Origin: Phorcus lineatus
Lineage: Eukaryota > Mollusca > Gastropoda > Trochida > Trochidae
NCBI GenBank assembly: GCA_921293015.1
Contig: OV121087.1
Span: forward strand, 5,654,501 to 5,718,500
DNA: 64,000 bases
Direction: 5' to 3'
The first letter of the stretch is position 1. Each line of letters opens with the position of its first letter. Below the pieces are notes generated by a model, which had not been told where the DNA came from, made no database searches, and saw only the letters and a program-made list of their open reading frames with translations. Positions 12,446-37,598 of the stretch are shown piece by piece. Made by a program: the position numbers and the translations under genes.

Positions 12446-12715
12446 AGAGAACAGTCAGTGTAGTGTTGCAGGTGGATGAGCTGTGTCTCCTGAAACCTCT
12501 ATCATCTATCATTGTGTTACGGGCTGTGCAGGTGTACACTCCATTGTCAGACACCTGCACATTCTCTATCAGCAGGTGAGGTCCCAGGAACGTTGTGGAG
12601 AGGTGCGTCCAGGTAATATTATCAGGTGCAGGCAATGCTTCCACGTCACAGGTTATATTCACAGATGTGTTAAGTAAGACATACTTGACAGTCAGGCATG
12701 TTGTCTTCACAGGAT
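12446..12715 (-). CDS. Ig-like domain exon, type B, last in the gene
   Basis: A 270-bp exon (90 codons) bounded by an AG acceptor at 12717-12716 and a GTGAGT donor at 12445-12440, phase 1 at both ends. The domain has the Ig hallmarks: a B-strand Cys in VNITCDVEA, a Trp in NITWTHL, and the F-strand motif DNGVYTC. It also carries the extra pair of cysteines typical of the B-type exons in this gene, one near the start (TTCLTV) and one near the G strand (SSTCNTT). It is the most 3' of the clear exons and a diverged relative of the array B exons. The partner ligand is unknown. Extracellular location is inferred from the domain type and from N-glycosylation sequons. Confidence 0.8.
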
Positions 12716-12928
12716 CTGGAGTATGAGTAATACTGTGTAAATAATTCATTGATATGAAATAAGGTTTTCGAAAACGAAAACAATAACAAAATCGATGAAC
12801 ATAAATGGGAGTGTTGGTGTTTCAGGAATAAATTAATTAGCGTTTGAAACGGTTTAATAGCTGTTTGGTACACCAATTTTAGTCATATAAAAAGAGAACA
12901 ACCAAAAGGATTCAAGCATTTTACTTAC

Positions 12929-13210
12929 AGAGAACGCGAAGCTCTAGCAAGTGAATGCCAAGTCCCTCGTTAACACCAGCCTCTGTGAGATTCATCCTGT
13001 TCCTCGCTTTAACTATGTAATATCCTGCATCAGATCTGTTAACGACGGAGATCAGAGGAGAAAGTGCTGATGCCTTACATGTTCCATTGTCGTTCTGTTT
13101 CTTCAATTCGTAAATATGAGGGATTGGATTCGAACCCATAGAAAGACTAATGTTAGCATAATAGCCCTCGATCACTGACTTGGTGCTTACAACTAAAGGT
13201 TGTGGGGGAT
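12929..13210 (-). CDS. Ig-like domain exon, type A (no Ig disulfide)
   Basis: A 282-bp exon (94 codons). The acceptor is TTTTTCAG ending at 13211 and the donor is GTAAGT at 12928-12923; phase 1 at both ends. It begins DPPQP and ends LELRVLC. The F-strand motif is DAGYYIV, where canonical Ig domains have Tyr-x-Cys, and the B-strand position is also not Cys (NISLSMG). It therefore resembles an Ig fold without the core disulfide. It is the same length as the array A exons and aligns with them, notably in the ISxxNRSxxGxYIVK segment and in the LGIHLLEL/LQFIRLH end. It follows a B-type exon (14015-14281), keeping the B-A alternation. Confidence 0.78.
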
Positions 13211-14014
13211 CTGAAAAATCAAACTATGTCTCAGCTATTATTTAAATGAGTTAAACAAACACTTTTCTCTTTAATCAAAGCTTAAGTGATAAACTCAAAC
13301 TGAGCCTGGATTAAACTCATCGTGTATTTCTATGAAAACGAGGATTAAAGTGATAAAGACACGTTTATTTGGTAACATTTTATTTATTCTACATCTACTC
13401 AGCAAAGGTTTGTTGAATCATGTCCAAAGTTAGTGAAAATATCACAGAAATAGGCTCGGCTCATTCAATCATCTTTCTGACGAAACCTTTTGAGGAGATG
13501 ATGAAACATCATGTTCCTATCACATGTTAAAATACAATATTTCTATTCCCACTCGAACACATTTAGCATGGATTTCTGAAATCACCGGGATCCAAATGCC
13601 AAAATTAAAATTTCCTCTGTATGAAAACGTTAACCGTTTTTGTTTTGTTTTTTGAAATTTTACCAGAATTGTGTTTTATTAATATGTTATTGCAGAATTA
13701 TGAAAATATGAAAGTTTTAATTTTTACCCAATGCCGCTTTTTGTAAAATGCCACAATTGTCTCAGACATGCAACATATGTACCATGCATGTGTAGTGTTG
13801 AACTGACCCCAGTGGGGTCTGTTAATCGTTAATGATTATTATAAAAATTTCACAAAGTAAAAGCTCTTCAAAGTAAATTATGAACAATGTATCAAACTTT
13901 TGTTCAGCAGCTGTATATGTGAAGCGGGACGACAGACACAGATTAGATATATATAGGAAAGGAGAAAGTAAAATAGGGTTAATTCACTGACTTGCCATAA
14001 ACATCATCACTTAC

Positions 14015-14281
14015 ACATCACGTTCACTCTAGTAGAACATGTACCAGTCACTAGCCTGGATTTCCCAGTCACAATTAGAGTATTACTGGCGGTACATATG
14101 TAAAAATCAGCGTCAGTCTCAGCAATGTTAACCAGCACTAGAGTTGAACTATTGGACAGACGTTCGCCGGATCTATACCACTGTACAGTGGGCAGAGGAA
14201 AGGAATCTACTTGACATCTGAGAATCACCTCCCCACCTTTCAGAACATTCTGCTCCTCTTCACAAGACACTTCAGGAGGAT
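14015..14281 (-). CDS. Ig-like domain exon, type B
   Basis: A 267-bp exon (89 codons), acceptor TTTGCAG ending at 14282, donor GTAAGT at 14014-14009, phase 1-1. It starts DPPEVSCEEE and has the Ig core Cys residues in VILRCQVDS and DADFYICTAS, with Trp in VQWYRSG. The additional cysteines (VSCEEE and TGTCSTR) match those of the array B exons. It is the first diverged B exon downstream of the array. About 730 bp of intron separate it from the type A exon downstream and 800 bp from the array upstream. The upstream intron from about 14880 still resembles the array unit. Confidence 0.8.
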
Positions 14282-15081
14282 CTGCAAACTCATAAGCATA
14301 TTTATTCTGATCCATTTGGAGAAACTTATTATTAAAGTTATATTGTCGCTGAAGTTATTTAAGATTTCATCTCTTAATTTGCGTATGCTTCATGTGAAAA
14401 AAACAAAATACATGAAGTCCTATGAAATGTAAGCTTGAGCCATATAATATGCAATCATCAGTGCTTTCTTTGACGTATGACGAAACAGTGATTATCGAAG
14501 ATAATGTTTCGAATTTCATAACACTTTGAAATTACCTTGATTCCGACATTATTTAATTGTCATTGTGAGGACTTTAAATATTTCGAATTGCCTTTTATGT
14601 AACTGTGATTTCGAAGATATAGTAACCATACGTGCGGCAAACCCAAGGGATTAACCTTTTGAAAAAATGCTTAGTTTTAATTATTTAATTCATGTTAGCT
14701 AAATACTGAAGTTATATTGTACAAGGATTTTTCGAAGTGTTCAGTGTATAAAGAATCATTTTGAAGTTTTTTCTGATCAGGAAATACATACCATTCAAAA
14801 TTGTTGTTATGTTAATTCATAATGTTGACATTTGCCGAATTTATCAACGGAAAGAAAACCTTTACTACCGGTCAGTTTACATGCACCTCCACATATTAAG
14901 ATTGACAACACAATAATTTTCAACAGTTGGGTTTACTGAAAAGGATGCAATATTTCTAAATATTTTCCTAACGTAATTTATTACTCTTTCGCAATTATTA
15001 ATTTGGAACACTACCCAACCGTGGCATTTTATCTTAAAAAAGATCAATCATTTTGTAAATGAAAAACAATAAACCACTTAC

Positions 15082-15363
15082 ATTGAACATGAAGTCGTAT
15101 GAACTGTAATCCTTCGCCATATCTTGTGCCATCATTGGTGCTTTCTAGGACATTATAGACTTTGACGATGTAGTCACCTGAGAAACTTCTGTTGATGTTA
15201 CTGATGAAAGGTGGAGAAGAGGTCTGTAAGTAATCTGTCTCATCACCTGCCTTTCTCCACCTGTACAGATGTGGAGGAGGGACCGACGCTACAGGTAAAC
15301 TCAGTCCGACATTATTTCCCTCCAGACATGACAGCGTGCCTGACATCTCGGGTTCAGGTGGTA
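15082..15363 (-). CDS. Ig-like exon A, array copy 1
   Basis: A 282-bp phase 1-1 exon (94 codons), acceptor TTCTGCAG, donor GTAAGT. It encodes VPPEPEMSG at the start and RLHVQC at the end. The Ig outline is present (YRWRKAG for the C strand, SGDYIVKVYN for the F strand), but the core cysteine positions are Leu and Val. Two other cysteines remain, in LSCLEG and VQC. It is the copy nearest the 3' end of the gene, and its downstream intron is the diverged version. Confidence 0.8.
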
Positions 15364-15614
15364 CTGCAGAATGTAATAACATTGCGCATATTGTCATTTT
15401 TATATGTAACAATTGCTGAATATCATGATGAATAAAACCAGCTGATGATAATTAAAGTTATTGTTGCCAAATACTAATTACTTTTCACCATTGCCATAAT
15501 GAAATTTAAAATTGACACTGTAACTTCATTTTTTAAACTAGAGTAGAAAGGGGAATATATTTATTAAAACATGTTTTGATGACTGTACAAAAGCAAGTTT
15601 AAATGTAGTCTCAC

Positions 15615-15938
15615 CAAGAACTGTGACCTTCATGCGACAGGTACCCGTTCCAACCACCTCCGATCCCTCAGAGCTCTGCATTGTATTATTTGCTTGGCAC
15701 AAATAACTTCCACTGTCACTTTCCTGAACCCTCTCTATAAGGTGGACAAACCTTTGAGAACCGTTGTTTGATGTGCTTGTGCTTGTGGATAGAGTTTGAT
15801 TGTTACCTCCTTTGAGTGAGAATTCATGTACCCATGTCACATTATTTGGCAGTGGTCGTGCGTCAACGAAGCACACAAGAATTAAACTTGTGTTTCGAAC
15901 AACAGTGTATTCGTCTTCACAGGATATGTTAGGTTCGT
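15615..15938 (-). CDS. Ig-like exon B, array copy 1
   Basis: A 324-bp phase 1-1 exon (108 codons), acceptor TTTCTCAG, donor GTGAGA. Core Ig cysteines lie in LILVCFVDA and SGSYLCQAN, and Trp in NVTWVHE. The extra pair is in NISCEDE and GTGTCRM. There are six N-X-S/T sequons (NIS, NTS, NVT, NQT, NGS, NNT), so the domain would be heavily glycosylated if secreted. A Thr-Ser run (STSTSTSNN) forms an extended middle loop, making it longer than the flanking B exons. Confidence 0.82.
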
Positions 15939-17475
15939 CTGAGAAATAAATGAGGTTTTGATTAAAACGTTGTTTTGTCAGTTAAAGTCATACTCTCATA
16001 TTTGCAAGTTGAATATTATTGCACATCAGGCAAATAGTTCATCACTCATCAATCTTTCCCCTGACGTTTGCAACAATTTTAAGCTCTTTGCGTGCAACCT
16101 TCAATATAGAATTTCAAAAGACTCTCCCACTCCCCATTGTTGTACGAAAATGCTTTCCAAGACTTTACAAAAGTCGGCATAAGAATCATTGAGGAGTCCT
16201 AATAACGGAGTCTCTAAAACGACTAAAAGATTAAATCTAGTCCTTCAAAAATCCTTGTATGTGAAATTTCGTAAAGCTAAGATAATTACTTATACAATGA
16301 TATAAATCACAAAACCCTTTGAGTATTGTTTCAGAACGATGTCTCACCTAGAAAACGCATTATGTTCAAGTTTAGTTGCAGTCCCTTATAGGCCGCTGCA
16401 ACCAAATTATTTGTTGTCAAATATTCATCCTTTGTCATGCCTCGGCTGATAATAATTTGCTTGCAGGTAATGAAATTTAATTATGTTATTGGGACCCCTC
16501 AATTACTCTTAGGCCTAAAACATGAAGTACACATAAAATTTGCTAGCTGAACTTTCCAGGAAAATAAGGGTCACAAAGAGCTTAGCCATTAGAACAATTT
16601 TGTCTTCAACCAAATAAACAAAATCACCAGAGAGCGGAAATCGGCTATACAGACTCTTATGCTATTGTGAAATATTATTCATAGGTTTTCCAATGCCCCT
16701 TAAATCAAGTTTTGTCTTCATCTCCCTTGCTCCAAAAACCTGAAATGTTTTGCATAGACCCTTTTGCTAATTGAGATCGTTATCTATAGATGTGTTGACA
16801 CTGTTTGCCCGTCACGTCCTTAAAACATATAAAACATATAAATCATAGACCACTGCCCCCAATGTCATCATATTCAATCACATCCAACATTGAGGTATGA
16901 ACATATACTTGAATATAGCGACCCTGACCTTATTTCAGAAGGTTAACTTTGAATGTTGATCTATTTTAAGTCTTGTTAAGTTTAATACCACTTACAACTG
17001 CATGACCAAATCTCTTCAAATTTTAAGGTCACTACAGCGCCTTTTATATAAGTAATACACAATGTTAAGAACATGTTTACTACAAAAACATAAAAACTTA
17101 AAAAATGCACCCCCTTTGTCATTATAAGCAGAAAGAGATTTTTCATTTGTTATGGCAAATATTTGTTTATTCAAAAGTTTGTTTTATACATTATACAAAG
17201 AATAATTAAACTAAAGAATCAACAGATATATTTTTCCTACATCAAATTCGTTTCCTCCCCTCCCCCCATCTTTCCCAACACAAAGATTATTAAGATTGAA
17301 AACACATTTATTTTCAACAGATGGCTTTGCTGAAAAGGTTATTCATACTAAAATGTTTATATTTTTTATTTATCACTCTTTCCTGATAATCTAAGTTGCA
17401 CACTATCCAACCTTGTCTCTTTATCGTTTGTATCATATAAGCCATTCTGCTAATGAAAAACAATAAACCACTTAC

Positions 17476-17757
17476 ATTGAACATGAAGTCGTATGAACTG
17501 TAATCCTTCGCCATATCTTGTGCCATCATTAGTGCTTTCTAGGACATTATAGACTTTGACGATGTAGTCACCTGAGAAACTTCTGTTGATGTTACTGATG
17601 AAAGGTGGAGAAGAGGTCTGTAAGTAATCTGTCTCATCACCTGCCTTTCTCCACCTGTACAGATGTGGAGGAGGGACCGACGCTACAGGTAAACTCAGTC
17701 CGACATTATTTCCCTCCAGACATGACAGCGTGCCTGACATCTCGGGTTCAGGTGGTA
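17476..17757 (-). CDS. Ig-like exon A, array copy 2
   Basis: Same splice sites and same protein as copy 1 across the exon. Its downstream intron (15939-17475) is the first full copy of the 1.54-kb array intron. Confidence 0.8.
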
Positions 17758-18008
17758 CTGCAGAATGTAATAACATTGCGCATATTGTCATTTTTATATG
17801 TAACAATTGCTGAATATCATGATGAATAAAACCAGCTGATGATAATTAAAGTTATTGTTGCCAAATACTAATTACTTTTCACCATTGCCATAATGAAATT
17901 TAAAATTGACACTGTAACTTCATTTTTTAAACTAGAGTAGAAAGGGGAATATATTTATTAAAACATGTTTTGATGACTGTACAAAAGCAAGTTTAAATGT
18001 AGTCTCAC

Positions 18009-18332
18009 CAAGAACTGTGACCTTCATGCGACAGGTACCCGTTCCAACCACCTCCGATCCCTCAGAGCTCTGCATTGTATTATTTGCTTGGCACAAATAA
18101 CTTCCACTGTCACTTTCCTGAACCCTCTCTATAAGGTGGACAAACCTTTGAGAACCGTTGTTTGATGTGCTTGTGCTTGTGGATAGAGTTTGATTGTTAC
18201 CTCCTTTGAGTGAGAATTCATGTACCCATGTCACATTATTTGGCAGTGGTCGTGCGTCAACGAAGCACACAAGAATTAAACTTGTGTTTCGAACAACAGT
18301 GTATTCGTCTTCACAGGATATGTTAGGTTCGT
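18009..18332 (-). CDS. Ig-like exon B, array copy 2
   Basis: Encodes the same protein as copy 1, including NIS at the first sequon. Copies 1 and 2 are the closest pair in the array (both also read GAGTGAGAATTC where copies 3-5 read GAGCGAG), so they probably come from the latest duplication or conversion. Confidence 0.82.
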
Positions 18333-19869
18333 CTGAGAAATAAATGAGGTTTTGATTAAAAGGTTGTTTTGTCAGTTAAAGTCATACTCTCATATTTGCA
18401 AGTTGAATATTATTGCACATCAGGCAAATAGTTCATCACTCATCAATCTTTCCCCTGACGTTTGCAACAATTTTAAGCTCTTTGCGTGCAACCTTCAATA
18501 TAGAATTTCAAAAGACTCTCCCACTCCCCATTGTTGTACGAAAATGCTTTCCAAGACTTTACAAAAGTCGGCATAAGAATCATTGAGGAGTCCTAATAAC
18601 GGAGTCTCTAAAACGACTAAAAGATTAAATCTAGTCCTTCAAAAATCCTTGTATGTGAAATTTCGTAAAGCTAAGATAATTACTTATACAATGATATAAA
18701 TCACGAAACCCTTTGAGTATTGTTTCAGAACGATGTCTCACCTAGAAAACGCATTATGTTCAAGTTTAGTTGCAGTCCCTTATAGGCCGCTGCAACCAAA
18801 TTATTTGTTGTCAAATATTCATCCTTTGTCATGCCTCGGCTGATAATAATTTGCTTGCAGGTAATGAAATTTAATTATGTTATTGGGACCCCTCAATTAC
18901 TCTTAGGCCTAAAACATGATGCACACATAAAATTTGCTAGCTGAACTTTCCAGGAAAATAAGGGTCACAAAGAGCTTAGCCATTAGAACAATTTTGTCTT
19001 CAACCAAATAAACAAAATCACCAGAGAGCGGAAATCGGCTATACAGACTCTTATGCTATTGTGAAATATTATTCATAGGTTTTCCAATGCCCCTTAAATC
19101 AAGTTTTGTCTTCATCTCCCTTGCTCCAAAAACCTGAAATGTTTTGCATAGACCCTTTTGCTAATTGAGATCGTTATCTATAGATGTGTTGACACTGTTT
19201 GCCCGTCACGTCCTTAAAACATATAAAACATATAAATCATAGACCACTGCCCCCAATGTCATCATATTCAATCACATCCAACATTGAGGTATGAACATAT
19301 ACTTGAATATAGCGACCCTGACCTTATTTCAGAAGGTTAACTTTGAATGTTGATCTATTTTAAGTCTTGTTAAGTTTAATACCACTTACAACTGCATGAC
19401 CAAATCTCTTCAAATTTTAAGGTCACTACAGCGCCTTTTATATAAGTAATACACAATGTTAAGAACATGTTTACTACAAAAACATAAAAACATAAAAAAT
19501 GCACCCCCTTTGTCATTATAAGCAGAAAGAGATTTTTCATTTGTTATGGCAAATATTTGTTTATTCAAAAGTTTGTTTTATACATTATACAAAGAATAAT
19601 TAAACTAAAGAATCAACAGATATATTTTTCCTACATCAAATTCGTTTCCTCCCCTCCCCCCATCTTTCCCAACACAAAGATTATTAAGATTGAAAACACA
19701 TTTATTTTCAACAGATGGCTTTGCTGAAAAGGTTATTCATACTAAAATGTTTATATTTTTTATTTATCACTCTTTCCTGATAATCTAAGTTGCACACTAT
19801 CCAACCTTGTCTCTTTATCGTTTGTATCATATAAGCCATTCTGCTAATGAAAAACAATAAACCACTTAC

Positions 19870-20151
19870 ATTGAACATGAAGTCGTATGAACTGTAATCC
19901 TTCGCCATATCTTGTGCCATCATTAGTGCTTTCTAGGACATTATAGACTTTGACGATGTAGTCACCTGAGAAACTTCTGTTGATGTTACTGATGAAAGGT
20001 GGAGAAGAGGTCTGTAAGTAATCTGTCTCATCACCTGCCTTTCTCCACCTGTACAGATGTGGAGGAGGGACCGACGCTACAGGTAAACTCAGTCCGACAT
20101 TATTTCCCTCCAGACATGACAGCGTGCCTGACATCTCAGGTTCAGGTGGTA
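19870..20151 (-). CDS. Ig-like exon A, array copy 3
   Basis: Encodes the same residues as copies 1 and 2, with a synonymous change near the start of the exon (TGAGATG on the coding strand where copies 1 and 2 have CGAGATG). Confidence 0.8.
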
Positions 20152-20402
20152 CTGCAGAATGTAATAACATTGCGCATATTGTCATTTTTATATGTAACAA
20201 TTGCTGAATATCATGATAAATAAAACCAGCTGATGATAATTAAAGTTATTGTTGCCAAATACTAATTACTTTTCACCATTGCCATTATGAAATTTAAAAT
20301 TGACACTGTAACTTCATTTTTTAAACTAGAGTAGAAAGGGGAATATATTTATTAAAACATGTTTTGATGATTGTACAAAAGCAAGTTTAAATGTAGTCTC
20401 AC

Positions 20403-20726
20403 CAAGAACTGTGACCTTCATGCGACAGGTACCCGTTCCAACCACCTCCGATCCCTCAGAGCTCTGCATTGTATTATTTGCTTGGCACAAATAACTTCCA
20501 CTGTCACTTTCCTGAACCCTCTCTATAAGGTGGACAAACCTTTGAGAACCGTTGTTTGATGTGCTTGTGCTTGTGGATAGAGTTTGATTGTTACCTCCTT
20601 TGAGCGAGAATTCATGTACCCATGTCACATTATTTGGTAGTGGTCGTGCGTCAACGAAGCACACAAGAATTAAACTTGTGTTTCGAACAACAGTGTATTC
20701 GTCTTCACAGGTTATGTTAGGTTCGT
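20403..20726 (-). CDS. Ig-like exon B, array copy 3
   Basis: Differs from copies 1 and 2 by NIT in place of NIS at the first sequon, which keeps the glycosylation site, and by synonymous changes in the C-strand region. All four cysteines are kept. Confidence 0.82.
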
Positions 20727-22262
20727 CTGAGAAATAAATGATGTTTTGATTAAAACGTTGTTTTGTCAGTTAAAGTCATACTCTCATATTTGCAAGTTGA
20801 ATATTATTGCACATCAGGCAAATAGTTCATCACTCATCAATCTTTCCCCTGACGTTTGCAACAATTTTAAGCTCTTTGCGTGCAACCTTCAATATAGAAT
20901 TTCAAAAGACTCTCCCACTCCCCATTGTTGTACGAAAATGCTTTCCAAGACTTTACAAAAGTCGGCATAAGAATCATTGAGGAGTCCTAATAACGGAGTC
21001 TCTAAAACGACTAAAAGATTAAATCTAGTCCTTCAAAAATCCTTGTATGTGAAATTTCGTAAAGCTAAGATATTTACTTATACAATGATATATATCACGA
21101 AACCCTTTGAGTATTGTTTCAGAACGATGTATCACCTAGAAAACGCATAATGTTCAAGTTTGGTTGCAGTCCCTTATAGGCCGCTGCAACCAAATTATTT
21201 GTTGTCAAATATTCATCCTTTGTCATGCCTCGGCTGATAATAATTTGCTTGCAGGTAATGAAATTTAATTATGTTATCGGGACCCCTCAATTACTCTTAG
21301 GCCTAAAACATGAAGTACACATAAAATTTGCTAGCTGAACTTTCCAGGAAAATAAGGGTCACAAATGGCTAAGCCATTAGAACAATTTTGTCTTCAACCA
21401 AATAAACAAAATCACCAGAGAGCGGAAATCGGCTATACAGACTCTTATGCTATTGTGAAATATTATTTATAGGTTTTCCAATGCCCCTTAAATCAAGTTT
21501 TGTCTTCATCTCCCTTGCTCCAAAAACCTGAAATGTTTTGCATAGACCCTTTTGCTAATTGAGATCGTTATCTATAGATGTGTTGACACTGTTTGCCCGT
21601 CACGTCCTTAAAACATATAAAACATATAAATCATAGACCACTGCCCCCAATGTCATCATATTCAATCACATCCAACATTGAGGTATGAACATATACTTGA
21701 ATATAGCGACCCCGACCTTATTTCAGAAGGTTAACTTTGAATGTTGATCAATTTTAAGTCTTGTTAAGTTTAATACCACTTACAACTGCATGACCAAATC
21801 TCTTCAAATTTTAAGGTCACTACAGCGCCTTTTATATAAGTAATACACAATGTTAAGAACATGTTTACTACAAAAACATAAAAACTGATAAATGCACCCC
21901 CTTTGTCATTATAAGCAGAAAGAGATTTTTCATTTGTTATGGCAAATATTTGTTTATTCAAAAGTTTGTTTTATACATTATACAAAGAATAATTAAACTA
22001 AAGAATCAACAGATATATTTTTCCTACATCAAATTCGTTTCCTCCCCTCCCCCCATCTTTCCCAACACAAAGATTATTAAGATTGAAAACACATTTATTT
22101 TCAACAGATGGCTTTGCTGAAAAGGTTATTCATACTAAAATGTTTATATTTTTTATTTATCACTCTTTCCTGATAATCTAAGTTGCACACTATCCAACCT
22201 TGTCTCTTTATCGTTTGTATCATATAAGCCATTCTGCTAATGAAAAACAATAAACCACTTAC

Positions 22263-22544
22263 ATTGAACATGAAGTCGTATGAACTGTAATCCTTCGCCA
22301 TATCTTGTGCCATCATTAGTGCTTTCTAGGACATTATAGACTTTGACGATGTAGTCACCTGAGAAACTTCTGTTGATGTTACTGATGAAAGGTGGAGAAG
22401 AGGTCTGTAAGTAATCTGTCTCATCACCTGCCTTTCTCCACCTGTACAGATGTGGAGGAGGGACCGACGCTACAGGTAAAATCAGTCCGACATTATTTCC
22501 CTCCAGACATGACAGCGTGCCTGACATCTCAGGTTCAGGTGGTA
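22263..22544 (-). CDS. Ig-like exon A, array copy 4
   Basis: One replacement is visible against copies 1-3: GLILPV in place of GLSLPV, at the position where a canonical Ig domain would have its B strand. Splice sites are unchanged. Confidence 0.8.
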
Positions 22545-25513: not shown

Positions 25514-25595
25514 CTGAGAAAAAATTAATGTTTGATTAAAACGTTGTTTTGTCAGTTAAAGTCATACTCTCATATTTGCAAGTAGAATATTATTG

Positions 25596-27622: not shown

Positions 27623-27632
27623 CTCCCCGCCT
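27623..27632 (-). promoter_or_regulatory. Probable polypurine tract of the BEL element
   Basis: Directly internal to the 3' LTR the minus strand reads AGGCGGGGAG, an all-purine tract but for one C. This is where plus-strand DNA synthesis is primed in LTR retrotransposons. Confidence 0.6.
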
Positions 27633-27956
27633 GTAATCTTGTTAAAGATATCACCAAAAAAGTTGAAAAACATTTTTAAAAACTGGAAAAACATTAACAC
27701 ATATATATGACTTTAGAAAAAACATTCACTGTTAATAATTTTCAAAATGTCAATACAAACTACACTAAAGCCTGAATTCAGAGTTCTTAAAAATATGACA
27801 TGATGTTACTAATTGAAAAAACAGCATGAATCACTCATCATTTGCTGCAAGTTTCAGCAACAAAACAAGTTCTGTAATAGGGGGAGTGAGTTTCACTCAC
27901 AATGGATTTCTCAACTTGTCCGATAGGCCAATCATTACGCACAGTGTTCTTTTCTC
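27633..27956. other. BEL 3' untranslated stretch
   Basis: About 320 bp between the polypurine tract and the end of the integrase frame. No feature was seen. Confidence 0.5.
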
Positions 27957-29602
27957 TTAAAAGAACAACATCACATTTAGGTTACTGTCAACCCACTTGC
28001 GTCTAACCTGTAGGGTAGCTAGATAGTCCCTTTTCCACCTAAACCAAAACTGTTCAGCAAGTGCTTGCACAAGCTTCCACTGAGATTGATACAAATCTGC
28101 CATGTCACAGTTTGTCACAAGACATTCCACATGATCTGGCTTGAGTGTCAGCAGGGAAGAGGGACTCAGCATACCTGGCAACTCTGGGTCCGACGAAACT
28201 GGTATTATTGGTTTCCCATTAACCATTGCACAAATTTCTGCCATAGGTATTGTGAACACATCATGGGTGAGATTTCTGTGGGACACATTTGCTAGTAAGG
28301 AGTCTAGAATTCTTCTTGCTACGCCATTCATTCTCTCCCACACACCTCCCATATGGGATGCCTGAAGTGCATTGAAGATCCAGTTAGCTTTGTTAGCTGA
28401 CAGGAATCTCTGAACTGGTTCATCCTCCACATTTATCCCATTCACATTAAGAACAACACTTGCTCCTACGAAGTTGGTGCCTCTGTCGGAACAAAATTCC
28501 TTCACATAACCTCGGATAGATATAAAGCGCAGAACAGCGTTGATAAAAAGTTGAGGTACTCAGCTATTCTATGACTTCAATATGGATGGCTCTGATGACC
28601 AGGCATGTGAATAACAAGGCCAAGCTTTTACTACTTGCCGCTCCACCTCTTGTGCGTCGATTTGTGAAGGACCATGTGCCAAAAGTGTCAACATCCACAA
28701 AGGTAAAGGGAGGACTTGGTGTTAAGCGATCCTTTGGCAAGTCTGCCATTTTCTGTTCACAGCCCTTGCCGCGCAGCTTGCAACATTTCACACACTTGAA
28801 AATCACTGAGTTTATTAGCCGCTTGCCGCCAATGATCCATAGGCCAGCGCCTCTAATAGCTCCCTCCATGAAATGACGTTCACTTTCCTTTGGCAAGTCT
28901 GCCATTTTCTGTTCACCGCCCTTGCCGAGCAGCTTGCGACATTTCACACACTTGAAAATCACTGAGTTTATTAGCCGCTTACCGCCAATGATCCATAGGT
29001 CAGCGCCTCTAATAGCTCCCTCCGTGAAATGACGTCCCTGGTGATTCACTTTCTCGTTGTACATGCGCACTTATAGATGTAATAGATGTGGTGATGCCCT
29101 GCTATGATCAGTGGATTCTTTATGCCAATTTCTATCTCTGCCTTGTTGAGACGTCCACCTATTCTGAGCATTCCGTCCTCATCTATGATAGGATTTAAGG
29201 TAGAGAGTGGGCTGTCTTTCAATAAAGGCTTCTTTAACTGAATGTGTCGTATGTCCTCACAAAAGAATTCACACTGAACTTGGCGGATGATAAATTTTTC
29301 AGCTTTGATGTAAGCTTCGGCACTCACAATGTCACTTGGAGAGATGGGATGTTTTCGATCATGTGCAATACTTTGGAGTCTTGCTATAGCACATACAAGT
29401 TTTCTAAATTTGAAAATCGCGCAAAACGCTGAGTTTCAAGTTTTGGTCGTGACTCATCAATCCGTGTGACACATGACTGCACTTTACTTGGAAATTCATA
29501 CTCTAAGTCAGGACTGTTCACTGTCTCTTTGAAGTCTTGTTTGCTCGGGAGTTGAGAGGGGCCATTTAACCATTTGCTTTCTCCAATTATGCTTGCTGGC
29601 AT
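27957..29602 (-). pseudogene. BEL integrase region, broken, with duplicated zinc domain
   Basis: The upstream piece (29384-29602) is a poorly conserved linker. Next (29046-29327) comes the N-terminal segment with DEDGMLRIGGRLNKAE, the usual start of BEL integrase. The zinc-binding part (GKRLINSVIFKCVKCRK) occurs twice in frame in 28564-29070. It is followed by the core with a first Asp in FTFVDVDTFGTW, a second in FCSDRGTNFVGA and the Glu in MGGVWERMNG, so the D,D,E triad is visible. A C-terminal segment with KLVQALAEQFWFRWKRDYL (DUF5641-like) ends near 27957. Around 28505-28570 there is a TAG stop plus a change of frame, and other frame changes fall at the piece boundaries. It is not functional. 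Confidence 0.85.
28732..29043 (-). repeat. 156-bp in-frame tandem duplication in integrase
   Basis: A segment beginning CTTTGGCAAGTCTGCC starts at 28732 and again at 28888, 156 bp (52 codons) apart. The two copies are nearly the same for about 145 bp, covering the cysteine pair of the integrase zinc domain. The open frame runs through both copies. Confidence 0.9.
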
Positions 29603-31200
29603 GAATTTGTGCCACAGTCCACAGGATTTGTACCAGTCTCAACATAGTTCCACTGTTGTGGAGAGGAAAACTTTCTGATAACTGCTACTCTAATAGCCAC
29701 ATACACTGGAAGCCTCCTGGTTTCATTAGAAATGTACCCAAGTACAATGTGACTATCTGTAAAGTACTGAACAGACGAGTGCGGTACTTCCAAACTCTCA
29801 CATACTATGTTCCCCACCTCTATTGCCAACTCAGATGCACATAGTTCAAGTCGAGGTATTGTTTGTCCGTGCAAAGGAGCAACCTTTGCTTTTCCGAGCA
29901 GAAAACCAACTTCTGAATCTTTTTCGTTCTGTCCGACAAGATATGACACAGCAGAGATTGCTTTACCAGAGGCATCTGCATACACTTGTACCTGTGTACT
30001 TGCACCTGTAAATGCTCGCTGAAAATATGGTCTCGGAACGTTCAACTGTTCCAATGCACTTAAAGAGTCTCTCCAGGTTTCCCATTCAGCTTGATAATCT
30101 GTTGGTAGAGGATCATCCCACTTAACTTTCTGATTTATCAAGGAGTACCTTCCCTTGAATTGCAACTGGCGCAACAAGTCCGATTGGATCATAAACACTG
30201 TTGATGGCTGAAAGAACGCCTCGTTTTGTGAAGGGTTTCTGTTCACCTGACCATTTGAATGTGAATTACCATTCCACAACATTCCACAATATTCCAAGGC
30301 TTCTCTGTAGTCGGAGTTTGTGGCTATCAAAGTCTAAATCTTTCTAATCTTTAGCCAAATCGAAGGATTTCATCACTTCATGATTATTTGAGATAATCTT
30401 GTGTAGGCGAATGTTACCAAAGGTCAACAAACCTTGCGGGCTCCTTTTCACAAGATCAACTGCTTCACTGGACACAAGTCCATCATCAACATAAAAGTTA
30501 CTTTTAACAAAGTCTAATACATCCTCACCAAACATGTCTTTAGCTTCTTCTGCAGTTTTGTGTAAACCATATGCCACTATGGCTGGAGATGGCCGGTTAC
30601 CAAAGATAATTTCTGTGATCTTCTCTGACTTTGAAGCAATAGAATATTTGTCGTATGTCCCCCATCACTCCCACTTGATGTTTTCGGAATTTGAGAATAA
30701 TTTCAAGAAGACTGTTTTCCCTTGTAACAACACATTACTCAATGATACACCATTGTATGTGGCAGAAGAGTCAAATACCATGCGAATCTGATCAGGTTTT
30801 TTTGGATGGTACACGCCAAACAATGGCAAATACCAGCATTCCTCGCTTTCCTTCAATGGTGGGGCCTTTTCCACATGGTTGTTATCAAATATCTTAGCCA
30901 TGAGGTCCATTACATGCTATTTCTTAACAGTGTCCTGTTTTAAACTTCTATCCAGAGTTTTTGCTCGTTGCATGGCTTGCGATCTGTTGTTTGGGAGTGC
31001 TGGTCTGCTTGACTTGAAGGAAAGTGGTGACATCCAGTTACCTTCATTTCCTTTGTACATTTCTTTGTCTATTTGAAGAAGGAATTGTTGATCTTCAATG
31101 GACACTCCTGGTTTGTCATTACCCTTGCTAAGATGGAAAATAGAATCTCTAGAATTTTCACATGTCTGCATACAACATGGATCACAGAGTTCCTTCACGT
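29587..31200 (-). pseudogene. BEL reverse transcriptase and RNase H, broken
   Basis: The N-terminal RT segment is at 30917-31200 (contains GNWMSPLSFKSSRPALPNNR) and continues at 30665-30910 with ECWYLPLFGVYHPKK and IRMVFDSSATYNG after an in-frame stop near 30915. The next piece, 30344-30577, has the active-site motif FYVDDGLVS. Between them the RT looks shortened: the part that normally carries the first catalytic Asp is not recognisable. 29587-30330 holds the connection domain (KWDDPLP) and an RNase H with VYADASGKA, PRLELCASELA and YFTDSHIVLGY. Frame changes lie near 30340 and 29600. Confidence 0.88.
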
Positions 31201-31211
31201 TGAATAAGTTT

Positions 31212-31529
31212 TTGGGGGGGGCGTGATAGCGCAGTGGTTGGCACGTTCGGCTTCGGATCAGAAGGTCGGTGGTTCGAGTCCCGCCAGGGGCTCGGCAACT
31301 TTGTCTGCAGTAGAGAACTGTTCTACATGCAGTCAGGGTTGGGTGCAATGCTACACTGAAATTCAGCGCAGTACCACCCATGGTTCGCTAGTTCCAGCCG
31401 ATTCCAGCAGGTTTCACCGCAATGCATAGCCACAATGGTGTTGCGGGCTTTCTCCCTGCAATAATACTAGCATCCATGATATAAGTGAAATAATCTTAAA
31501 AGCAGCGTTAAACACCAACTCACCTCACC
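31212..31529 (+). mobile_element. tRNA-derived SINE inserted in the BEL element
   Basis: An 11-bp target duplication, TGAATAAGTTT, is seen at 31201-31211 and 31530-31540. The head is tRNA-like: a pol III A box TAGCGCAGTGG (31227-31237), a B box GGTTCGAGTCC (31271-31281) and an anticodon-arm sequence CTTCGGATCAGAAG (31251-31264) as in tRNA-Arg(UCG). A tRNA-unrelated body follows, and the 3' end is AGCGTTAAACACCAACTCAC followed by CTCACC. It lies between the protease and RT regions of the retrotransposon, so it arrived after the BEL element. Confidence 0.88.
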
Positions 31530-31540
31530 TGAATAAGTTT

Positions 31541-32196
31541 GGCATGGTTCATCTACTGTAGGCCTACCGCTTTGTAGAAGATTTGTCTTGCTGACATTTA
31601 CAAAGTCTTGTTTGTGTACCTTACCCAATACAATTTTCTCCAATAATCACCCTGTAGTTTTTGTGCCTAGGGTGTGTTACCTGGCCAAAAATGATGATCA
31701 TATACATGGTGAGCTTTGATCATGTCCCGTCCAATGAGTAAAAGAATTTCAAATGAATCGTCTATCGGTGGAATGAGACTAACAATATCACTGAGGTGTG
31801 AGTAGTGCCTTGCCACTTCAGGAGTGGGAATTTCATCTCTCTGATTGGGTATCGAATTGCATTAGATAATTGCTGGAAGTTCAAGACTAGTACTACCATC
31901 AATTGGCTCCACAATAAAACCTGATGCTGTATAATAGGTATTTCTTCAAACTTCACATTGAACGTGTCAAAGAACTCTGTACGCGCCAAAGTAGAGTTAC
32001 TCTGGTCATCAAGCAATGCGTACATCTTAACTGTATGGTCTGGTTGCTCCTTGGGGTGTACTTTTACCAGAACCGTCTTGGCACAAGACTTTCCGCTGAA
32101 TCCATTTCCACATATCTGAGTGCACTTTATTGAAACAGGGTTATTTGGCGTACGCTTCTGAAGGGTCTGCTCTCGCTCCCCGCCATTATCTCTTGG
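31541..32196 (-). pseudogene. BEL aspartic protease region, degenerate
   Basis: The frame 31762-32025 contains MYALLDDQSNSTLA, which fits the Asp-containing active-site loop of BEL/Pao proteases. Upstream sequence to 32196 links it to the zinc-knuckle part of gag in the same frame but with stops. Downstream to 31541 only a degenerate linker is seen before the SINE. Confidence 0.7.
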
Positions 32197-34120
32197 CTAT
32201 GAATGACTTCCATTACTCGCTTGGTAGTCAATATGGAGCGCTGTAGCGTGCGTCTGAATGTTACACTGTCTACACTTCTCGGCATCATTGCACATTTTCA
32301 CTATGTGCTCACTCGATGCACAGCATTTATAGCAAATGCGATTTCTTCTCAAAATGTCTTTTCTTTCCTCATAGTCATTCATTTTGAATGCCTTACAATC
32401 ATTCAGCAAATGTTTAGTTTTGTGAGGTGGACACAAAGTTTTAGTGTCGAACAATTTGGTCTCGGCAACTTCAGTTTTTCTTGAATTTACAGAGGGGTAG
32501 GCTTGTTTAAATGTCGGTTTGTCTTGTGTGATAGGAGTACTTTGGCAAATGTCATGAGCGAAGCTTGGGTCATTTGGAACCTTACTAGCTTTAGCTAAGA
32601 ACTCAACAAATACAGAAAAAGAAGGAAATGAGATACTGTGTCTTTCTTTATAAGTCGGAGCATGACTTGTCCACTTTTCCTGTAAGGAATGGGGAAGTTT
32701 TTTAACTATCAGAATCACACCTCCTGATGAATCAAAATATGTCAAATGAATTCTGTATCTCTCACAACTCTTGAGTGACTCTATCTCATTAACTAGGTCT
32801 GATATAGTTCATAAAGTTTCTTATTGTCTTTATTTGTTAACTTTGGAAAGCGTATAAGCCAGGCTTTCAGCGATGCCTCAACCATTTCAGGAGCACCATA
32901 TCTTTCATCAAGTCTCTACCATAGTCGTTCAACAGCTACCTGAGGATAATGAGCATTTGATGTTTTAATGCTCAATGCATGTTTGCCTGATTCGTGACCT
33001 AACCATTTCACTAACAAGTCCAGCTGTTCACTTGCTGAAACAGTCATGTCTGTCATTACACTCAGGAACCCTGCCTTCCAGGTGTGGTGCGTCTCTGGTT
33101 GGTCGTTAAAGCTGTATAGCCTTGAAAAGAGTAGATCTTTCCTCAACAGGAAACGTGAAATGTCCATCACCAGATGAGAAGGTTCGTAAACATCAGCATT
33201 AGGGTTAAGTTGAAAGGTTTTAATGCCTGTGTTTTCCTGCTGATCAATAACCTGTTCAATATTATGTTGAAGCTGTGGGGAATTAGACAAGTTATGCTGT
33301 GTCTGCCTAATATCTTGTACATAGTCATTAGTCCGTTGCTGTGGATCTTCTTCTGGAAGTGACAGTTCTTGCAATTCTTCCTGGACTTCAACAGTCTGTA
33401 GGGCTTTTGCTTCAGCTACTGCTTCAGCCGTTGCCTTTTGTTGTTTTAGGAAAAGTTGATCAGCTTCTAATTGAGCAAGTTTCCTTTTTGCTACAGCTGC
33501 CGCTACTTGAGTTTCTTCAGTAATAACAGCTCTTTGTCTAAGCAGGTTTGCTTCTTTGCAAGCATAATCAACTGCGGCCTTTGCTTCTTCTGCTTTAGCA
33601 AGCTTTCTTGCCACGTACGAACTACTTTCTGAATCGTGGGATCCAGATTTTCTTGGACCAGATTTATGTGAACGGCAGGACATCTTCTCAACAATATTGT
33701 CCATGAGTTTATCAATGTCAGAAACAGCACTGTCCATCTGAATTGCATAACTACTAAACTTATCATTAAGAATGTGCAAGTCATGTGTACTTTCTTCAGT
33801 GCATGTTTTTTTAAGGAACACAGCAAAATCGTTGTAGATATTCCTAAATTTGTCAAAATTGCTTTTCAAATCTTTTTCACATTTTCTTACTGCCTGCAAA
33901 TCGTGAGCACCCGCCCTTATGTCCTCAATATTCCTTGCAACATATTGCCAAGCTGAGTCAAATTTACAATGAAAGTCACGCCTGTGTGATTCATATAAAC
34001 TTTGACCTTTCTCAGTTAATGACCTTGTTCGTTATCGTCAGCACTATCGATAACATCTTCAACCTCACCTTGTTTCTGTGGATTATCAATGTTTTGATCT
34101 AAAGATGAACTTTCCGCCAT
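32197..34120 (-). pseudogene. BEL gag, broken by frameshifts
   Basis: The probable start codon is at 34120-34118, opening MAESSSLDQN; this frame closes after about 33 codons, and homologous coding sequence continues in another frame (SLTEKGQSLYESHR) near 34022. 32916-33899 is a long open piece with a coiled-coil, Lys/Ala/Glu-rich part (VAAAVAKRKLAQLEADQ) and a capsid-like end (HHTWKAGFLSVM, EQLDLLVKWLG). 32197-32745, in a third frame, carries the zinc-binding part (CPPHKTKHLLNDC, CYKCCASSEHIVKMC and CRQCNIQTH). Gag would package the element RNA. It is non-functional as it stands. Confidence 0.85.
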
Positions 34121-35242
34121 GTTAACGTGTGTGTTTTTATAACAGTTTGAAAGCAATGTTCATTGAAGTTTCTAAGTTTATTGTTTTGACCGGTGTGGCG
34201 TTCCATATTTAGAAATATTATTTCAAATATTTGTCTCTTTCCCTCGATAGCTTTCCAAATTCCGTTGACTGCAACTATAGAAGAGGTCGTGGTCAATTTA
34301 CTGTGCTGTAAGCGTTTATTTCGGATATTTAGGTACAGTAGTGCCGAGGTTACCGTCGACATCATGTTGTAAATTGCTAAAATGGACAAAAACGAAAATT
34401 ACTTATATTCAGGAATAAAACACTTTCTTGCCACGTACGAACTACTTTCTGAATCGTGGGATCCAGATTTTCTTGGACCAGATTTATGTGAACGGCAGGA
34501 CATCTTCTCAACAATATTGTCCATGAGTTTATCAATGTCAGAAACAGCACTGTCCATCTGAATTGCATAACTACTAAACTTATCATTAAGAATGTGCAAG
34601 TCATGTGTACTTTCTTCAGTGCATGTTTTTTTAAGGAACACAGCAAAATCGTTGTAGATATTCCTAAATTTGTCAAAATTGCTTTTCAAATCTTTTTCAC
34701 ATTTTCTTACTGCCTGCAAATCGTGAGCACCCGCCCTTATGTCCTCAATATTCCTTGCAACATATTGCCAAGCTGAGTCAAATTTACAATGAAAGTCACG
34801 CCTGTGTGATTCATATAAACTTTGACCTTTCTCAGTTAATGACCTTGTTCGTTATCGTCAGCACTATCGATAACATCTTCAACCTCACCTTGTTTCTGTG
34901 GATTATCAATGTTTTGATCTAAAGATGAACTTTCCGCCATGTTAACGTGTGTGTTTTTATAACAGTTTGAAAGCAATGTTCATTGAAGTTTCTAAGTTTA
35001 TTGTTTTGACCGGTGTGGCGTTCCATATTTAGAAATATTATTTCAAATATTTGTCTCTTTCCCTCGATAGCTTTCCAAATTCCGTTGACTGCAACTATAG
35101 AAGAGGTCGTGGTCAATTTACTGTGCTGTAAGCGTTTATTTCGGATATTTAGGTACAGTAGTGCCGAGGTTACCGTCGACATCATGTTGTAAATTGCTAA
35201 AATTGACAAAAACGAAAATTACTTATATTCAGGAATAAAACA
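33603..35242 (-). repeat. 820-bp tandem duplication over the BEL 5' LTR edge, leader and gag start
   Basis: 33603-34422 and 34423-35242 are almost identical; I noticed one base difference (AATGGAC against AATTGAC, 34381 and 35201 lines). Each copy contains about 120 bp of LTR end, the leader, the gag start codon and the first part of gag. The junction shows CTT shared by both break sites. The low divergence against the LTR differences makes it much younger than the BEL insertion. Confidence 0.93.
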
Positions 35243-35560
35243 CTTGTAAAATCATACCATTAAAACACATATTTCTAGAAGAATTAAATCCCAAAATATT
35301 ACAGTCTGAAACATATTCGAGAAACTAACACATTTTTTCCTATCCCAAAATTAAGTCGTCTAAACGATATTACGAGAGCTTCGTTTACATTGTAAAAGCA
35401 CATGGCATGAATTTTCAAACAATTTATGATAAAATTTACATGACATTTTGTTGATCTATTCAAAAGTATAAAAATAGATTTAGGTAAGACTAATTGCGCA
35501 AAGCTGTGGATACCACTACAAAATATAAATTTTCAAAAAACTGTCATTTGTGACAGAACA
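35122..35560 (-). repeat. BEL 5' LTR (short form, 439 bp)
   Basis: In element direction it begins TGTTCTGTCACAAATGACAG and ends CAGCACA. It lacks the two blocks present in the other LTR. The target duplication ATAGG follows at 35561. A further 121-bp LTR fragment at 34302-34422 comes from the 820-bp duplication. I could not identify a convincing primer-binding site beside it. Confidence 0.88.
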
Positions 35561-35660
35561 ATAGGAATTAATGACGGAGCTAGCTCTTTTGAGAGAGAAT
35601 GTGTGTACTAAAGAACCAATAGATATATTCGCTGCTTCTAAGAATCTGCTTAGAACTTAC

Positions 35661-35945
35661 ACAAAATACTGAGTTTGATGAGGCGAGCTCCATGCCCAAA
35701 TTCGGGTAAGCCATGAGTAACATTCATCCAGTTCCTTAAAAATAATAAGTACTGTCCGGAATCCGACACTGTCAAATTATACAAAACCGGGGGCACTGAA
35801 CTGTTTCGTATGAGAAAGCTTCCATTATTTTTGGCAATCAGGGAGTATGTATCAGGAGGCGGGTTACAATGCCTTGAAGACCCTATTGTGATGTTGGAGC
35901 CAATAAATGTATCGTAGATATCCACTGTTATCAGAGGAGGAGGAA
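35661..35945 (-). CDS. Ig-like domain exon, type A, upstream of the array
   Basis: A 285-bp phase 1-1 exon (95 codons), acceptor TTTTCTAG ending at 35946, donor GTAAGT at 35660-35655. It opens VPPPL or IPPPL, depending on the base supplied by the previous exon. It shows the type A pattern: DSGQYLLFLRN at the F strand with Leu in place of the core Cys, and an end IKLSILC equivalent to LQFIRLHVQC. The intron downstream resembles the array intron, so this exon belongs to an old copy of the same unit. Several N-X-S/T sequons are present (NIT, NGS, NSS, NLT, NVT). Confidence 0.78.
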
Positions 35946-36653
35946 CTAGAAAATAAAAATCAAATCACGAATTCAGTACAGTGGATAAACATGAAAGAAA
36001 GAAATATGTCATCATAATAAGAAAGATAGCACGTATCAAAGGTGATTCAATATCCTCTCTTACTGACGTATTATACAGAGAAGTTATATCATTATAAGAA
36101 TTATTTTAAAGGGGCTTTTTTGAAAATTTCAGAGGATCAAAAATCTTTTTACACAACTCGGTTATCTGTAGTCGTATAAAGCAGTTTACAAGTATTGAGC
36201 AAAATACCCTAGAGGCCATTTTGTGTGAACTTCTTTTAATCATTTATGGTATGGAAATAGATTCGTCGCATTGCTTAAATGGTACGTTCGTTTTAGAGCT
36301 ACTTTTTTATTCAATAAACATCGCCTTGCATTAAGTAACTTAATTACTCGTGTTGAGGTCATTATGTGAAATACAAGGACTCGAGACCTGACTCCTGAGG
36401 CGGTCTGACCCGACAAAGGCCTCAGGTCAATCAGTCAACTGACCAATGATTTTCTTACAACTTTAATAGAGGTATAATACTAAATTTTGTTTTCACGAGA
36501 TCACTTTATTTATCTTTAATAACGTACTACTGCCCATTTCAATTACATTTTTCTGAAGTGATCAATATTGAAAAAAGACGTTGAACTATATTAATTTGAG
36601 AATAAATAGAACGCGAATTAACTAAATGGTAATTATACAAAAAGGATACATAC

Positions 36654-36884
36654 AAAATACGAGGACAATTGTGTGGCTTGTGTCAATTTGCTGTCCATTC
36701 TTGAATACTTGACACTCTAGCATTTCACCATTTTCCTCTTCGGAGAAGGCTCGGGAAAGACTGGACGTGTTGCCAATAACGACCTCTCCCAATGTCCATA
36801 TAATGTCAAATGATTGTTCTTCAGTACAGTTTACGTTTACTTCACTTTGTGGGTACACACGGAGTTGGGGTAGATCGAAGGCAA
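36654..36884 (-). CDS. Short Ig-like domain exon
   Basis: A 231-bp phase 1-1 exon (77 codons), acceptor TTGACAG ending at 36885, donor GTATGT at 36653-36648. Core cysteines are in VNVNCTEEQ and EMLECQVFKNG, and Trp in DIIWTLG. It is compact and lacks the extra cysteine pair of the B exons, so it fills a B position in the alternation without being a clear B homologue. Confidence 0.72.
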
Positions 36885-37319
36885 CTGTCAAGTAGAAGAC
36901 ATTCTAGTAGCATTGCCAAAATACAATAAACCCAAGATGTGAATAATACTGATTGACAAAGATAAGATCGTTGATCAATAGGCATAATGAATAAAGGCGT
37001 GACTTTAAGACAAGTGCTATTTGAACCTAATGGTGTTACAATCATATATCATATTTTCTTGTTTGTGCTCGAGGGAATAGTGTATCTTAGGAATTACTTA
37101 TATATGATTGATATATGTAGTACAAGTCATGTTCATATATTTATTTTACCTATTCTAGCTGAGACAGGTAGAGACATTTATTTCAATATGCTGAAGTTTT
37201 TAAAGGAAACACTTTATAAGGAAATACTTTCAGCGGTCAGACTTACTGGAAATAGACAGTAATCGCCCGATTAACAATTTTAATAACAGTTTAGGAATAA
37301 ATCCGTCTTTTATACAAAC

Positions 37320-37598
37320 CTTTATGACACATAATCCAAACATGACGAGAACTGCAGTCCTCTGTTGGATGAAAATCGGTTTGGCAGTGGAAAAGTGATG
37401 ACTCGTACCCATCACATGCGAATTTTCTCAACAATGTTTGTTCAGGTCCTTCGTCGGTTGAATAATACTTGATTGATTCACTGTCAATACAGATTGGAAA
37501 GGATATTGTATAATGATTTCCGAGTATTTTTATTCCGATTGGCTGATCTAATGAAATTCCTTTCTTGATTTTAAATGAGTACCCGCAAAGCAGCAACC
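37320..37598 (-). CDS. SRCR-like domain exon
   Basis: A 279-bp phase 1-1 exon (93 codons), acceptor TTTTTAAG ending at 37599, donor GTTTGT at 37319-37314. The C-terminal half, with FACDGYESSLFHC followed by a further Cys in TEDCSS and a final WIMC, has the spacing of the end of a scavenger receptor cysteine-rich domain, a secreted or surface ligand-binding module. The N-terminal half is weak and the exon is a little short for a whole SRCR, so part may lie on another exon. It is the most 5' exon that I can support. The signal peptide and promoter were not found upstream. Confidence 0.6.

What the first reader, a model, noticed from the sequence alone, without database searches (positions are those of the whole stretch)
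12446..37598. Ig gene built from alternating A and B modules, all exons phase 1-1, with five near-identical pairs
Read from the sequence: 15 Ig-like exons whose order on the minus strand is (B-like)-A-[B-A]x5-B-A-B, following an SRCR-like exon. The five central pairs are almost identical while the flanking pairs have diverged strongly. Symmetric phase 1 exons mean that unit copy number can change freely, 202 residues at a time. This is the layout expected for a surface protein whose reach or valency varies between individuals. I do not recognise the gene as a described family.
Basis: partly seen in the sequence, partly recalled or inferred. Interest (0 to 1): 0.82.

Follow-up and report, generated by a model that had tools for sequence, protein, structure and literature searches.

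The report
Receptor gene with repeating Ig-module array
This animal gene appears to build a long, probably surface-bound protein from scavenger-receptor domains followed by strictly alternating immunoglobulin modules of two types, and one module pair has recently multiplied to five near-identical copies, so the protein's length may still be changing.

Summary
The minus strand carries 15 Ig-like exons, all phase 1-1 with AG/GT ends, and five A-B pairs form a 2,394-bp array (14894-25595). The SRCR-like exon is the second half of a split SRCR domain and probably starts at 37480, not 37598. The first Ig-like exon (X) is a separate domain, not a B module.

In the window's own assembly (958 Mb) the gene continues upstream: ten SRCR domains by motif, each in two exons, some in a second near-identical array (520-bp unit). 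B modules were found in three genes only: this one (7 B-A pairs) and two facing paralogues on another contig (10 and 8 pairs). Alternation is strict in all three. All 23 complete A modules have four cysteines; the 25 B modules have none or one. Both paralogues have a transmembrane exon after the last A; I found none here within 42 kb. Paralogue modules show dN/dS 0.13-0.41 (18 of 20; two saturated).

Best reading: a small SRCR(-LDLa)-Ig receptor family whose phase-1 modules gain and lose copies by unequal exchange. Two protein searches found no close relative. Variation between individuals, expression, ligand and species are untested.

The parts
37320..37480 (-). SRCR domain, 3'-half exon (phase 2-1); its likely 5'-half exon lies about 39 kb upstream, outside the window (C12:5731374)
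   Evidence: Pfam SRCR E 6.1e-5, below cut-off, for the half alone; 6.6e-17 when joined to the upstream half, using the longer reading of this exon; exon start set by comparison with related half exons
36654..36884 (-). X exon: short Ig-like domain, phase 1-1, found just before the first B module in all three genes
   Evidence: splice sites; 25-26% identical exons in both paralogues, E 1.6e-8 and 5.8e-6; weak Ig_2 hit below cut-off
35661..35945 (-). B-type module b0 (diverged)
14894..25595 (-). recent tandem array: five A-B exon pairs plus introns, unit 2394 bp
25190..25513 (-). A1 module exon
24657..24938 (-). B1 module exon
22796..23119 (-). A2 module exon
22263..22544 (-). B2 module exon
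20403..20726 (-). A3 module exon
19870..20151 (-). B3 module exon
18009..18332 (-). A4 module exon
17476..17757 (-). B4 module exon
15615..15938 (-). A5 module exon
15082..15363 (-). B5 module exon
14410..14469 (-). decayed 3' end of an older B exon (pseudo-exon)
   Evidence: 80% identity over 60 bp to the B5 exon 3' end; weak B-HMM hit E 0.075
14015..14281 (-). A-type module a6 (diverged)
12929..13210 (-). B-type module b6 (diverged)
12446..12715 (-). A-type module a7 (diverged); last Ig module found
25597..26423 (-). remains of an older copy of the B-to-A intron, in two pieces 73-81% identical to the intron of the array units
26748..35560 (.). decayed BEL/Pao-type LTR retrotransposon inserted in the intron between b0 and A1 (coding direction minus)
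   Evidence: Pao peptidase PF05380 E 6.9e-28; direct repeats at both ends, about 90-97% identical in pieces

Best explanation
The window holds the 3' part of a large receptor gene of an SRCR(-LDLa)-X-[B-A]n family. The extracellular part is a set of SRCR domains, a short X domain, then a rod of strictly alternating Ig modules: A, with four conserved cysteines, and B, which keeps the tyrosine-corner motif but lacks the B- and F-strand cysteines (shown by sequence). In the two paralogues the rod is followed by a transmembrane helix, so the family is most likely type I membrane receptors. Every Ig module is one phase 1-1 exon. Unequal crossing-over or gene conversion between homologous introns can therefore add or remove whole pairs without breaking the frame (shown: array, differing pair numbers; suggested: exchange between units; inferred: crossing-over as the process). 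The five-unit array is the latest round; the diverged modules and the pseudo-exon are remains of earlier ones. Function (inferred): the SRCR head binds a microbial or self ligand, and the B-A rod, rich in N-glycosylation sequons, sets its distance from the membrane and offers repeated faces. Pair number then tunes reach or valency.
For: Exon anatomy; 51 sequons in 1,547 residues. Array: exons 9 variable sites of 606 against 57 variable columns (2 of them gaps) of 1,788 intron bases, Fisher p 0.03; 4 nonsynonymous changes against 5 synonymous plus 57 intronic, p 0.004. 24 four-gamete conflicts between units, 9 outside the diverged 3' flank, 2 of those within the exons and the A-B intron. Two own-genome searches with single B modules returned the same 25 places: 7 in this gene, 10 + 8 in two C17 genes. 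Strict B-A alternation in all three genes; phase-1 AG and GT candidates at both ends in 49 of 50 modules, in a script that looked for phase 1 only. 23 of 25 A modules with 4 Cys (the other two are 45-residue fragments), 25 of 25 B modules with 0-1 Cys in the matched stretch. dN/dS 0.13-0.41 in 18 of 20 comparisons, 2 saturated. SRCR and LDLa exons upstream; Pfam confirms the three joined SRCR and two LDLa sequences tried. Ten SRCR 5' and ten 3' half exons alternate in this gene, by motif, with a 520-bp SRCR array. Transmembrane exon in both paralogues.
Against: No transcript evidence. No transmembrane exon for this gene in 42 kb downstream, by similarity or hydrophobicity scan. That the SRCR half exon in the window joins one 39 kb upstream is inferred from phase and order only. 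No LDLa exon was seen in the fetched part of this gene, and its 5' end was not reached. The B model is poor (pLDDT 48). Selection tests within the array rest on nine exon sites and ignore relatedness; recurrent mutation could give a few four-gamete conflicts. One g2 B module lacks a donor, and some g1 modules have no clear g2 partner. Homologues outside this genome were only generic Ig hits. No signal-peptide exon was identified.
Confidence: 0.72

Rival explanations
1. The five pairs are alternatives: a Dscam-like cluster from which splicing picks one pair per transcript, so the array gives choice rather than length.
For: Tandem duplicated Ig exons with separate introns; arthropod Dscam clusters are built from tandem exon copies (recalled, not tested).
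Against: The five copies encode almost the same protein (4 nonsynonymous sites in 606 nt), so choosing gives almost no diversity. Every Ig exon is symmetric, so constitutive splicing keeps frame. Paralogue modules stay under dN/dS 0.13-0.41 where measurable.
Confidence: 0.08
2. The array is a neutral by-product of unequal crossing-over: pair number drifts and has no functional meaning.
For: Homogenised introns and conflicting sites fit ordinary concerted evolution. A second array exists in the SRCR part, and paralogue g1 has a recent internal duplication, 94-99.8% identical in pieces. Exchange therefore seems common wherever modules lie in tandem.
Against: Amino-acid changes inside the array are about four-fold rarer per site than synonymous ones (small counts). 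This speaks for selection on module sequence but says nothing on pair number.
Confidence: 0.4
3. The gene in the window is a decaying or secreted member that has lost its membrane anchor and 3' end.
For: No transmembrane exon within 42 kb. Reading through the a7 donor adds 13 residues and a stop, with an AATAAA at 12194-12199. A large transposon sits in one intron.
Against: All 16 exons are open with AG/GT ends, and the array shows fewer amino-acid changes than expected.
Confidence: 0.25
4. Part of the array is an assembly artefact: false duplication of nearly identical units.
For: U3 and U4 differ at only 12 of 2,394 sites, within what allelic difference could be. The A4 and A5 exons and the A-B introns of units 2, 4 and 5 are identical in DNA. 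An 820-bp repeat nearby is 99.9% identical.
Against: U1 differs from U2-U4 by 54-56 sites and U2 from U3/U4 by 20-23. No two-unit period is seen, as haplotype stacking would give. Diverged modules and paralogues show the same alternation.
Confidence: 0.1

Closest known systems
SRCR superfamily, multi-SRCR receptors with other domains (survey PMC10855680: abstract and passages read)
   Same: Tandem SRCR domains, LDL-A as a common partner, Ig_3 listed for zebrafish, SRCR number varying from two to six in a sponge tandem cluster, proposed immune recognition role.
   Different: The passages I read describe no long alternating B-A Ig rod.
CEACAM / PSG family of mammals (PMC7893922, PMC10440875: passages read)
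   Same: Duplicated pairs of A and B Ig exons (A1,B1,A2,B2). A B1 exon has a corrupted splice acceptor in most human PSG genes, comparable to the pseudo-exon here. The B profile's best PDB hit is carcinoembryonic antigen 1e07, E 5.5e-9.
   Different: There the protein starts with an IgV N domain, and CEA's matching domains keep the strand cysteines (visible in the alignment). Here B modules lack them, SRCR domains precede, and alternation reaches 10 pairs. The resemblance is of layout; descent is not shown.
Hemicentin-like Ig proteins, e.g. P0020 of Haliotis asinina
   Same: Long Ig rods with a similar A-type F-G segment (CTASNT...G...GTA), seen by eye in P0020; the better protein-database hits are of this generic kind.
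   Different: No B-type module above 12.5 bits in any of 86 retrieved Ig proteins. P0020 is 25% identical and has a CUB, not an SRCR, among its precomputed domains.
Class 1-1 modular proteins such as titin or twitchin (PMC8001218: passages read)
   Same: Symmetric phase-1 Ig exons, the usual class for metazoan exon shuffling.
   Different: Probably extracellular, with two module kinds in strict alternation and a recent array.

Membership tests
Immunoglobulin superfamily | Ig domains recognised by family profiles | tested here: met
   A exons: Ig_3 E 3.1e-11 to 1.7e-14, above cut-off. B exons: below cut-off or no Ig hit singly, but the B profile hits Ig chains in the PDB, best E 5.5e-9.
Immunoglobulin superfamily | canonical intersheet disulfide (B- and F-strand cysteines) | tested here: inconclusive
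   Cysteines present in A modules; the pair is absent in all 25 B modules. Bonds themselves not testable.
SRCR superfamily | SRCR domain | tested here: met
   Pfam SRCR E 6.6e-17 (window half joined to upstream half) and 1.1e-30 for an upstream array domain; the window half alone is below cut-off and weak against the PDB (best E 0.035).
SRCR superfamily | group A layout: one SRCR domain in two exons (definition recalled) | tested here: met
   Half exons alternate 10 + 10 in this gene, by motif; a phase-2 junction candidate in 7 of 7 5' halves and 8 of 8 3' halves examined.
CEACAM/PSG | paired A and B Ig exons in tandem | tested here: met
   Strict alternation in three genes.
CEACAM/PSG | N-terminal IgV-like domain | tested here: inconclusive
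   In the stretches held, X and SRCR exons precede the Ig rod, but the 5' end of this gene was not reached.
Dscam-type alternative cluster | mutually exclusive splicing of diverse copies | not testable with these tools
   No RNA; copies nearly identical.
VIgL (FREP/CREP/GREP) | Ig plus fibrinogen or lectin domain | not tested
   Not searched for specifically.
Type I membrane receptor | single transmembrane helix after the ectodomain | tested here: inconclusive
   Homologous hydrophobic exon in both paralogues; not found for this gene.

The most novel reading that the evidence does not exclude
An invertebrate receptor family in which both the binding head (SRCR array, 520-bp unit) and the stalk (B-A Ig array, 2,394-bp unit) are exon VNTRs. 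Individuals would carry proteins of different reach and valency: a length-based form of receptor polymorphism, built on a rod that alternates four-cysteine and cysteine-poor Ig modules.
Probability: 0.3. Interest if true: 0.7.

Novelty: new variant of a known kind. Interest (0 to 1): 0.52.

Why it matters
Invertebrate receptor diversity is usually sought in gene number, splicing or point variation. Here whole exons can be added or removed in frame in two places of one gene, so genotyping two arrays in a population would test directly whether receptor length varies and is selected. The constant alternation of four-cysteine and cysteine-poor Ig modules across 25 pairs (five of them near-identical copies) also makes the B-A pair a clear unit for structural work.

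Tried and rejected
Rejected: X as a B module (no hit to either module HMM). SRCR exon starting at 37598 (related half exons point to 37480). Transmembrane candidates in the C12 3' flank: 19 phase-1 candidates at hydrophobicity 2.0 or more, none resembling the paralogues' exon by eye. Two-unit haplotype stacking as the origin of the array.

Led nowhere: species identification by the LINE ORF (best named invertebrate hits Haliotis, 38%). Structure of the B module (pLDDT 48). Structural search of the A model (not accepted). Rfam (no match at gathering score). NCBIfam (no hit for 8 exons). A literature search for Hydractinia-type Ig proteins listed two papers that I did not open.

Literature basis: nine searches. 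Passages seen in PMC7893922, PMC10440875, PMC8001218, PMC9334734 and PMC10855680 (abstract and outline). Other papers were seen only as listings.

Full report
Observation. The minus strand of 12446-37598 holds 15 Ig-like exons and one SRCR-like exon. Every Ig-like exon begins after AG, ends before GT, has a length divisible by three and is phase 1-1. The order is X - b0 - [A-B]x5 - a6 - b6 - a7. The array runs from 14894 to 25595 with a 2,393-2,394 bp unit. Stop-free frames of these lengths are rare to absent in the surrounding introns.

Module types. The three A-type exons tested match Ig_3 and related Pfam families above cut-off; the three B-type exons tested do not. A profile of the B exons finds Ig proteins in the PDB, first carcinoembryonic antigen (E 5.5e-9), so B is an Ig domain by sequence, although its fold could not be modelled well (pLDDT 48; A: 84). 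A has four conserved cysteines; B lacks the pair on strands B and F but keeps an S/D-x-G-x-Y-like motif.

Array history. Full units U1-U4 differ by 12 to 56 sites of about 2,394; U1, at the 5' end of the array in gene order, is the most different of these four. In the 1,127-base core that all five share, unit 5 differs from the others by 52-66 sites, because its last 188 bases lie at the diverged edge of the array. There are 24 four-gamete conflicts; 15 involve sites in that edge, 9 do not, and 2 of the 9 (A exon or A-B intron against B exon) lie away from both flanks. This suggests exchange between units; recurrent mutation could give a few such conflicts. Exons vary at 9 of 606 sites, introns at 57 of 1,788 columns (two of them gaps; the long intron is compared in four units only): p 0.03. 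Nonsynonymous changes are 4 against 5 synonymous (p 0.034); against synonymous plus intron changes p is 0.004. Counts are small and the tests ignore relatedness. Older rounds are visible as pieces of a B-to-A intron 73-81% identical to the array's and as a decayed B exon end between B5 and a6 (80% over 60 bp). A BEL/Pao element with terminal repeats about 90-97% identical in pieces lies in the intron between b0 and A1.

The gene outside the window. The window is C12:5654501-5718500 of a 957.8-Mb assembly with 74 contigs. Upstream on the same strand lie SRCR half exons, found by motif, that alternate 5' half - 3' half through ten domains, the last 3' half being the one in the window. The window's half begins at 37480 in phase 2, judged from its relatives: a phase-2 candidate exists in 7 of 7 5' halves and 8 of 8 3' halves examined. 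Joined to the half exon about 39 kb upstream it matches Pfam SRCR at E 6.6e-17 (the joined form used the longer 92-residue reading of the window half). About 3.8 SRCR units form a second tandem array with a 520-bp period (5738092-5740062, 94.7% at one-unit offset); the outermost 3' half has a different N-terminal edge. No LDLa exon was seen in the fetched part of this gene, and its N-terminus was not reached.

The family. Two searches of the whole assembly with single B modules each returned the same 25 places: 7 here and 18 on contig C17 (the tool scores only its best candidates, here 30 of 30 and 41 of 41). The C17 places form two genes that face each other: g1 (plus strand) with 10 B-A pairs and g2 (minus strand) with 8. 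Alternation is strict in all three genes. A script that looked for phase-1 sites only found an AG and a GT at both ends of 49 of 50 modules; a few picks are weak or clearly inner sites, and one g2 B module, which looks degenerate, has no donor. Of 25 A modules 23 have exactly four cysteines; the other two are 45-residue fragments of an A module split by a long insertion. All 25 B modules have none or one in the matched stretch. Both C17 genes have an X exon before the first B, and SRCR and LDLa exons upstream (Pfam for examples). Eighteen of 20 g1 modules compared with their best g2 match gave dN/dS 0.13-0.41 and two were saturated; some g1 modules have no clear positional partner in g2. g1 also has a recent internal duplication (94% over 1,015 bp and 99.8% over 592 bp).

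Membrane anchor. Directly after the last A module, g1 and g2 carry a homologous exon with a strong hydrophobic helix followed by basic residues. A search of the assembly with it found only those two at E 1 or better, and a hydrophobicity scan of 42 kb below a7 gave 19 phase-1 candidates, none convincing. The gene in the window may have a diverged or distant anchor, may be secreted, or may have lost its 3' end. Reading through the a7 donor adds 13 residues and a stop, with AATAAA at 12194-12199.

Comparison. Class 1-1 exons are the rule for shuffled animal modules (PMC8001218, passages). Duplicated A and B Ig exon pairs, and loss of a B exon by a corrupted acceptor, are known in primate PSG genes (PMC7893922, passages). 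A 29-species survey lists LDL-A, and for zebrafish Ig_3, among domains found with SRCR (PMC10855680, abstract and passages). I found no description of a four-cysteine/cysteine-poor B-A rod behind SRCR domains in nine searches of the library. Two protein-database searches with the gene gave only generic Ig hits at 21-33% identity, and none of the 86 retrieved proteins scored above 12.5 bits with the B profile. The protein search needs exact short words and limits length, so relatives may have been missed.

Mechanism and limits. Shown: module anatomy, strict alternation, array, transmembrane exon in the paralogues, low dN/dS between paralogues. Suggested: exchange between units and constraint within the array. 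Inferred: one transcript from SRCR to a7, unequal crossing-over as the process, a recognition role for the SRCR head, and reach or valency as the meaning of pair number. Variation between individuals, expression and species were not testable here.

Noticed in passing
46466-48171: Tandem array of a 145-bp unit, 11.8 copies, 93% matches, between LINE-like fragments (endonuclease-like ORF at 45571-46179, below cut-off; reverse-transcriptase-like frames near 48.7-49.7 kb by eye).
   Followed up: no
58475-63633: LINE with endonuclease, reverse transcriptase and RNase H in long open frames plus an upstream frame without a Pfam hit; closest protein 62% identical, from a source without a name.
   Followed up: partly
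33603-35245: 820-bp tandem duplication, 99.9% identical, inside the BEL/Pao element: very recent or an assembly error.
   Followed up: no
38121-39199 (+): Transposase remnant with a DDE_3 domain, E 4.5e-11, probably Tc1/mariner-like (by eye).
   Followed up: no
L017 5423-7159 (+) and L018 418-1749 (-): In both C17 paralogues one A module is split by a several-hundred-residue insertion within one open frame; the 45-residue A fragment after it is 98% identical between the genes with dN/dS 0.13.
   Followed up: partly
L044 and the adjoining end of L015, C12:5738092-5740062: Second exon array of the same gene: SRCR two-exon units, 520-bp period, with near-identical SRCR peptides.
   Followed up: partly
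C17:2454821-2513337 (L016, L017, L037-L040, L018): The two C17 paralogues face each other tail to tail about 32 kb apart, with differing numbers of SRCR, LDLa and B-A modules.
   Followed up: partly
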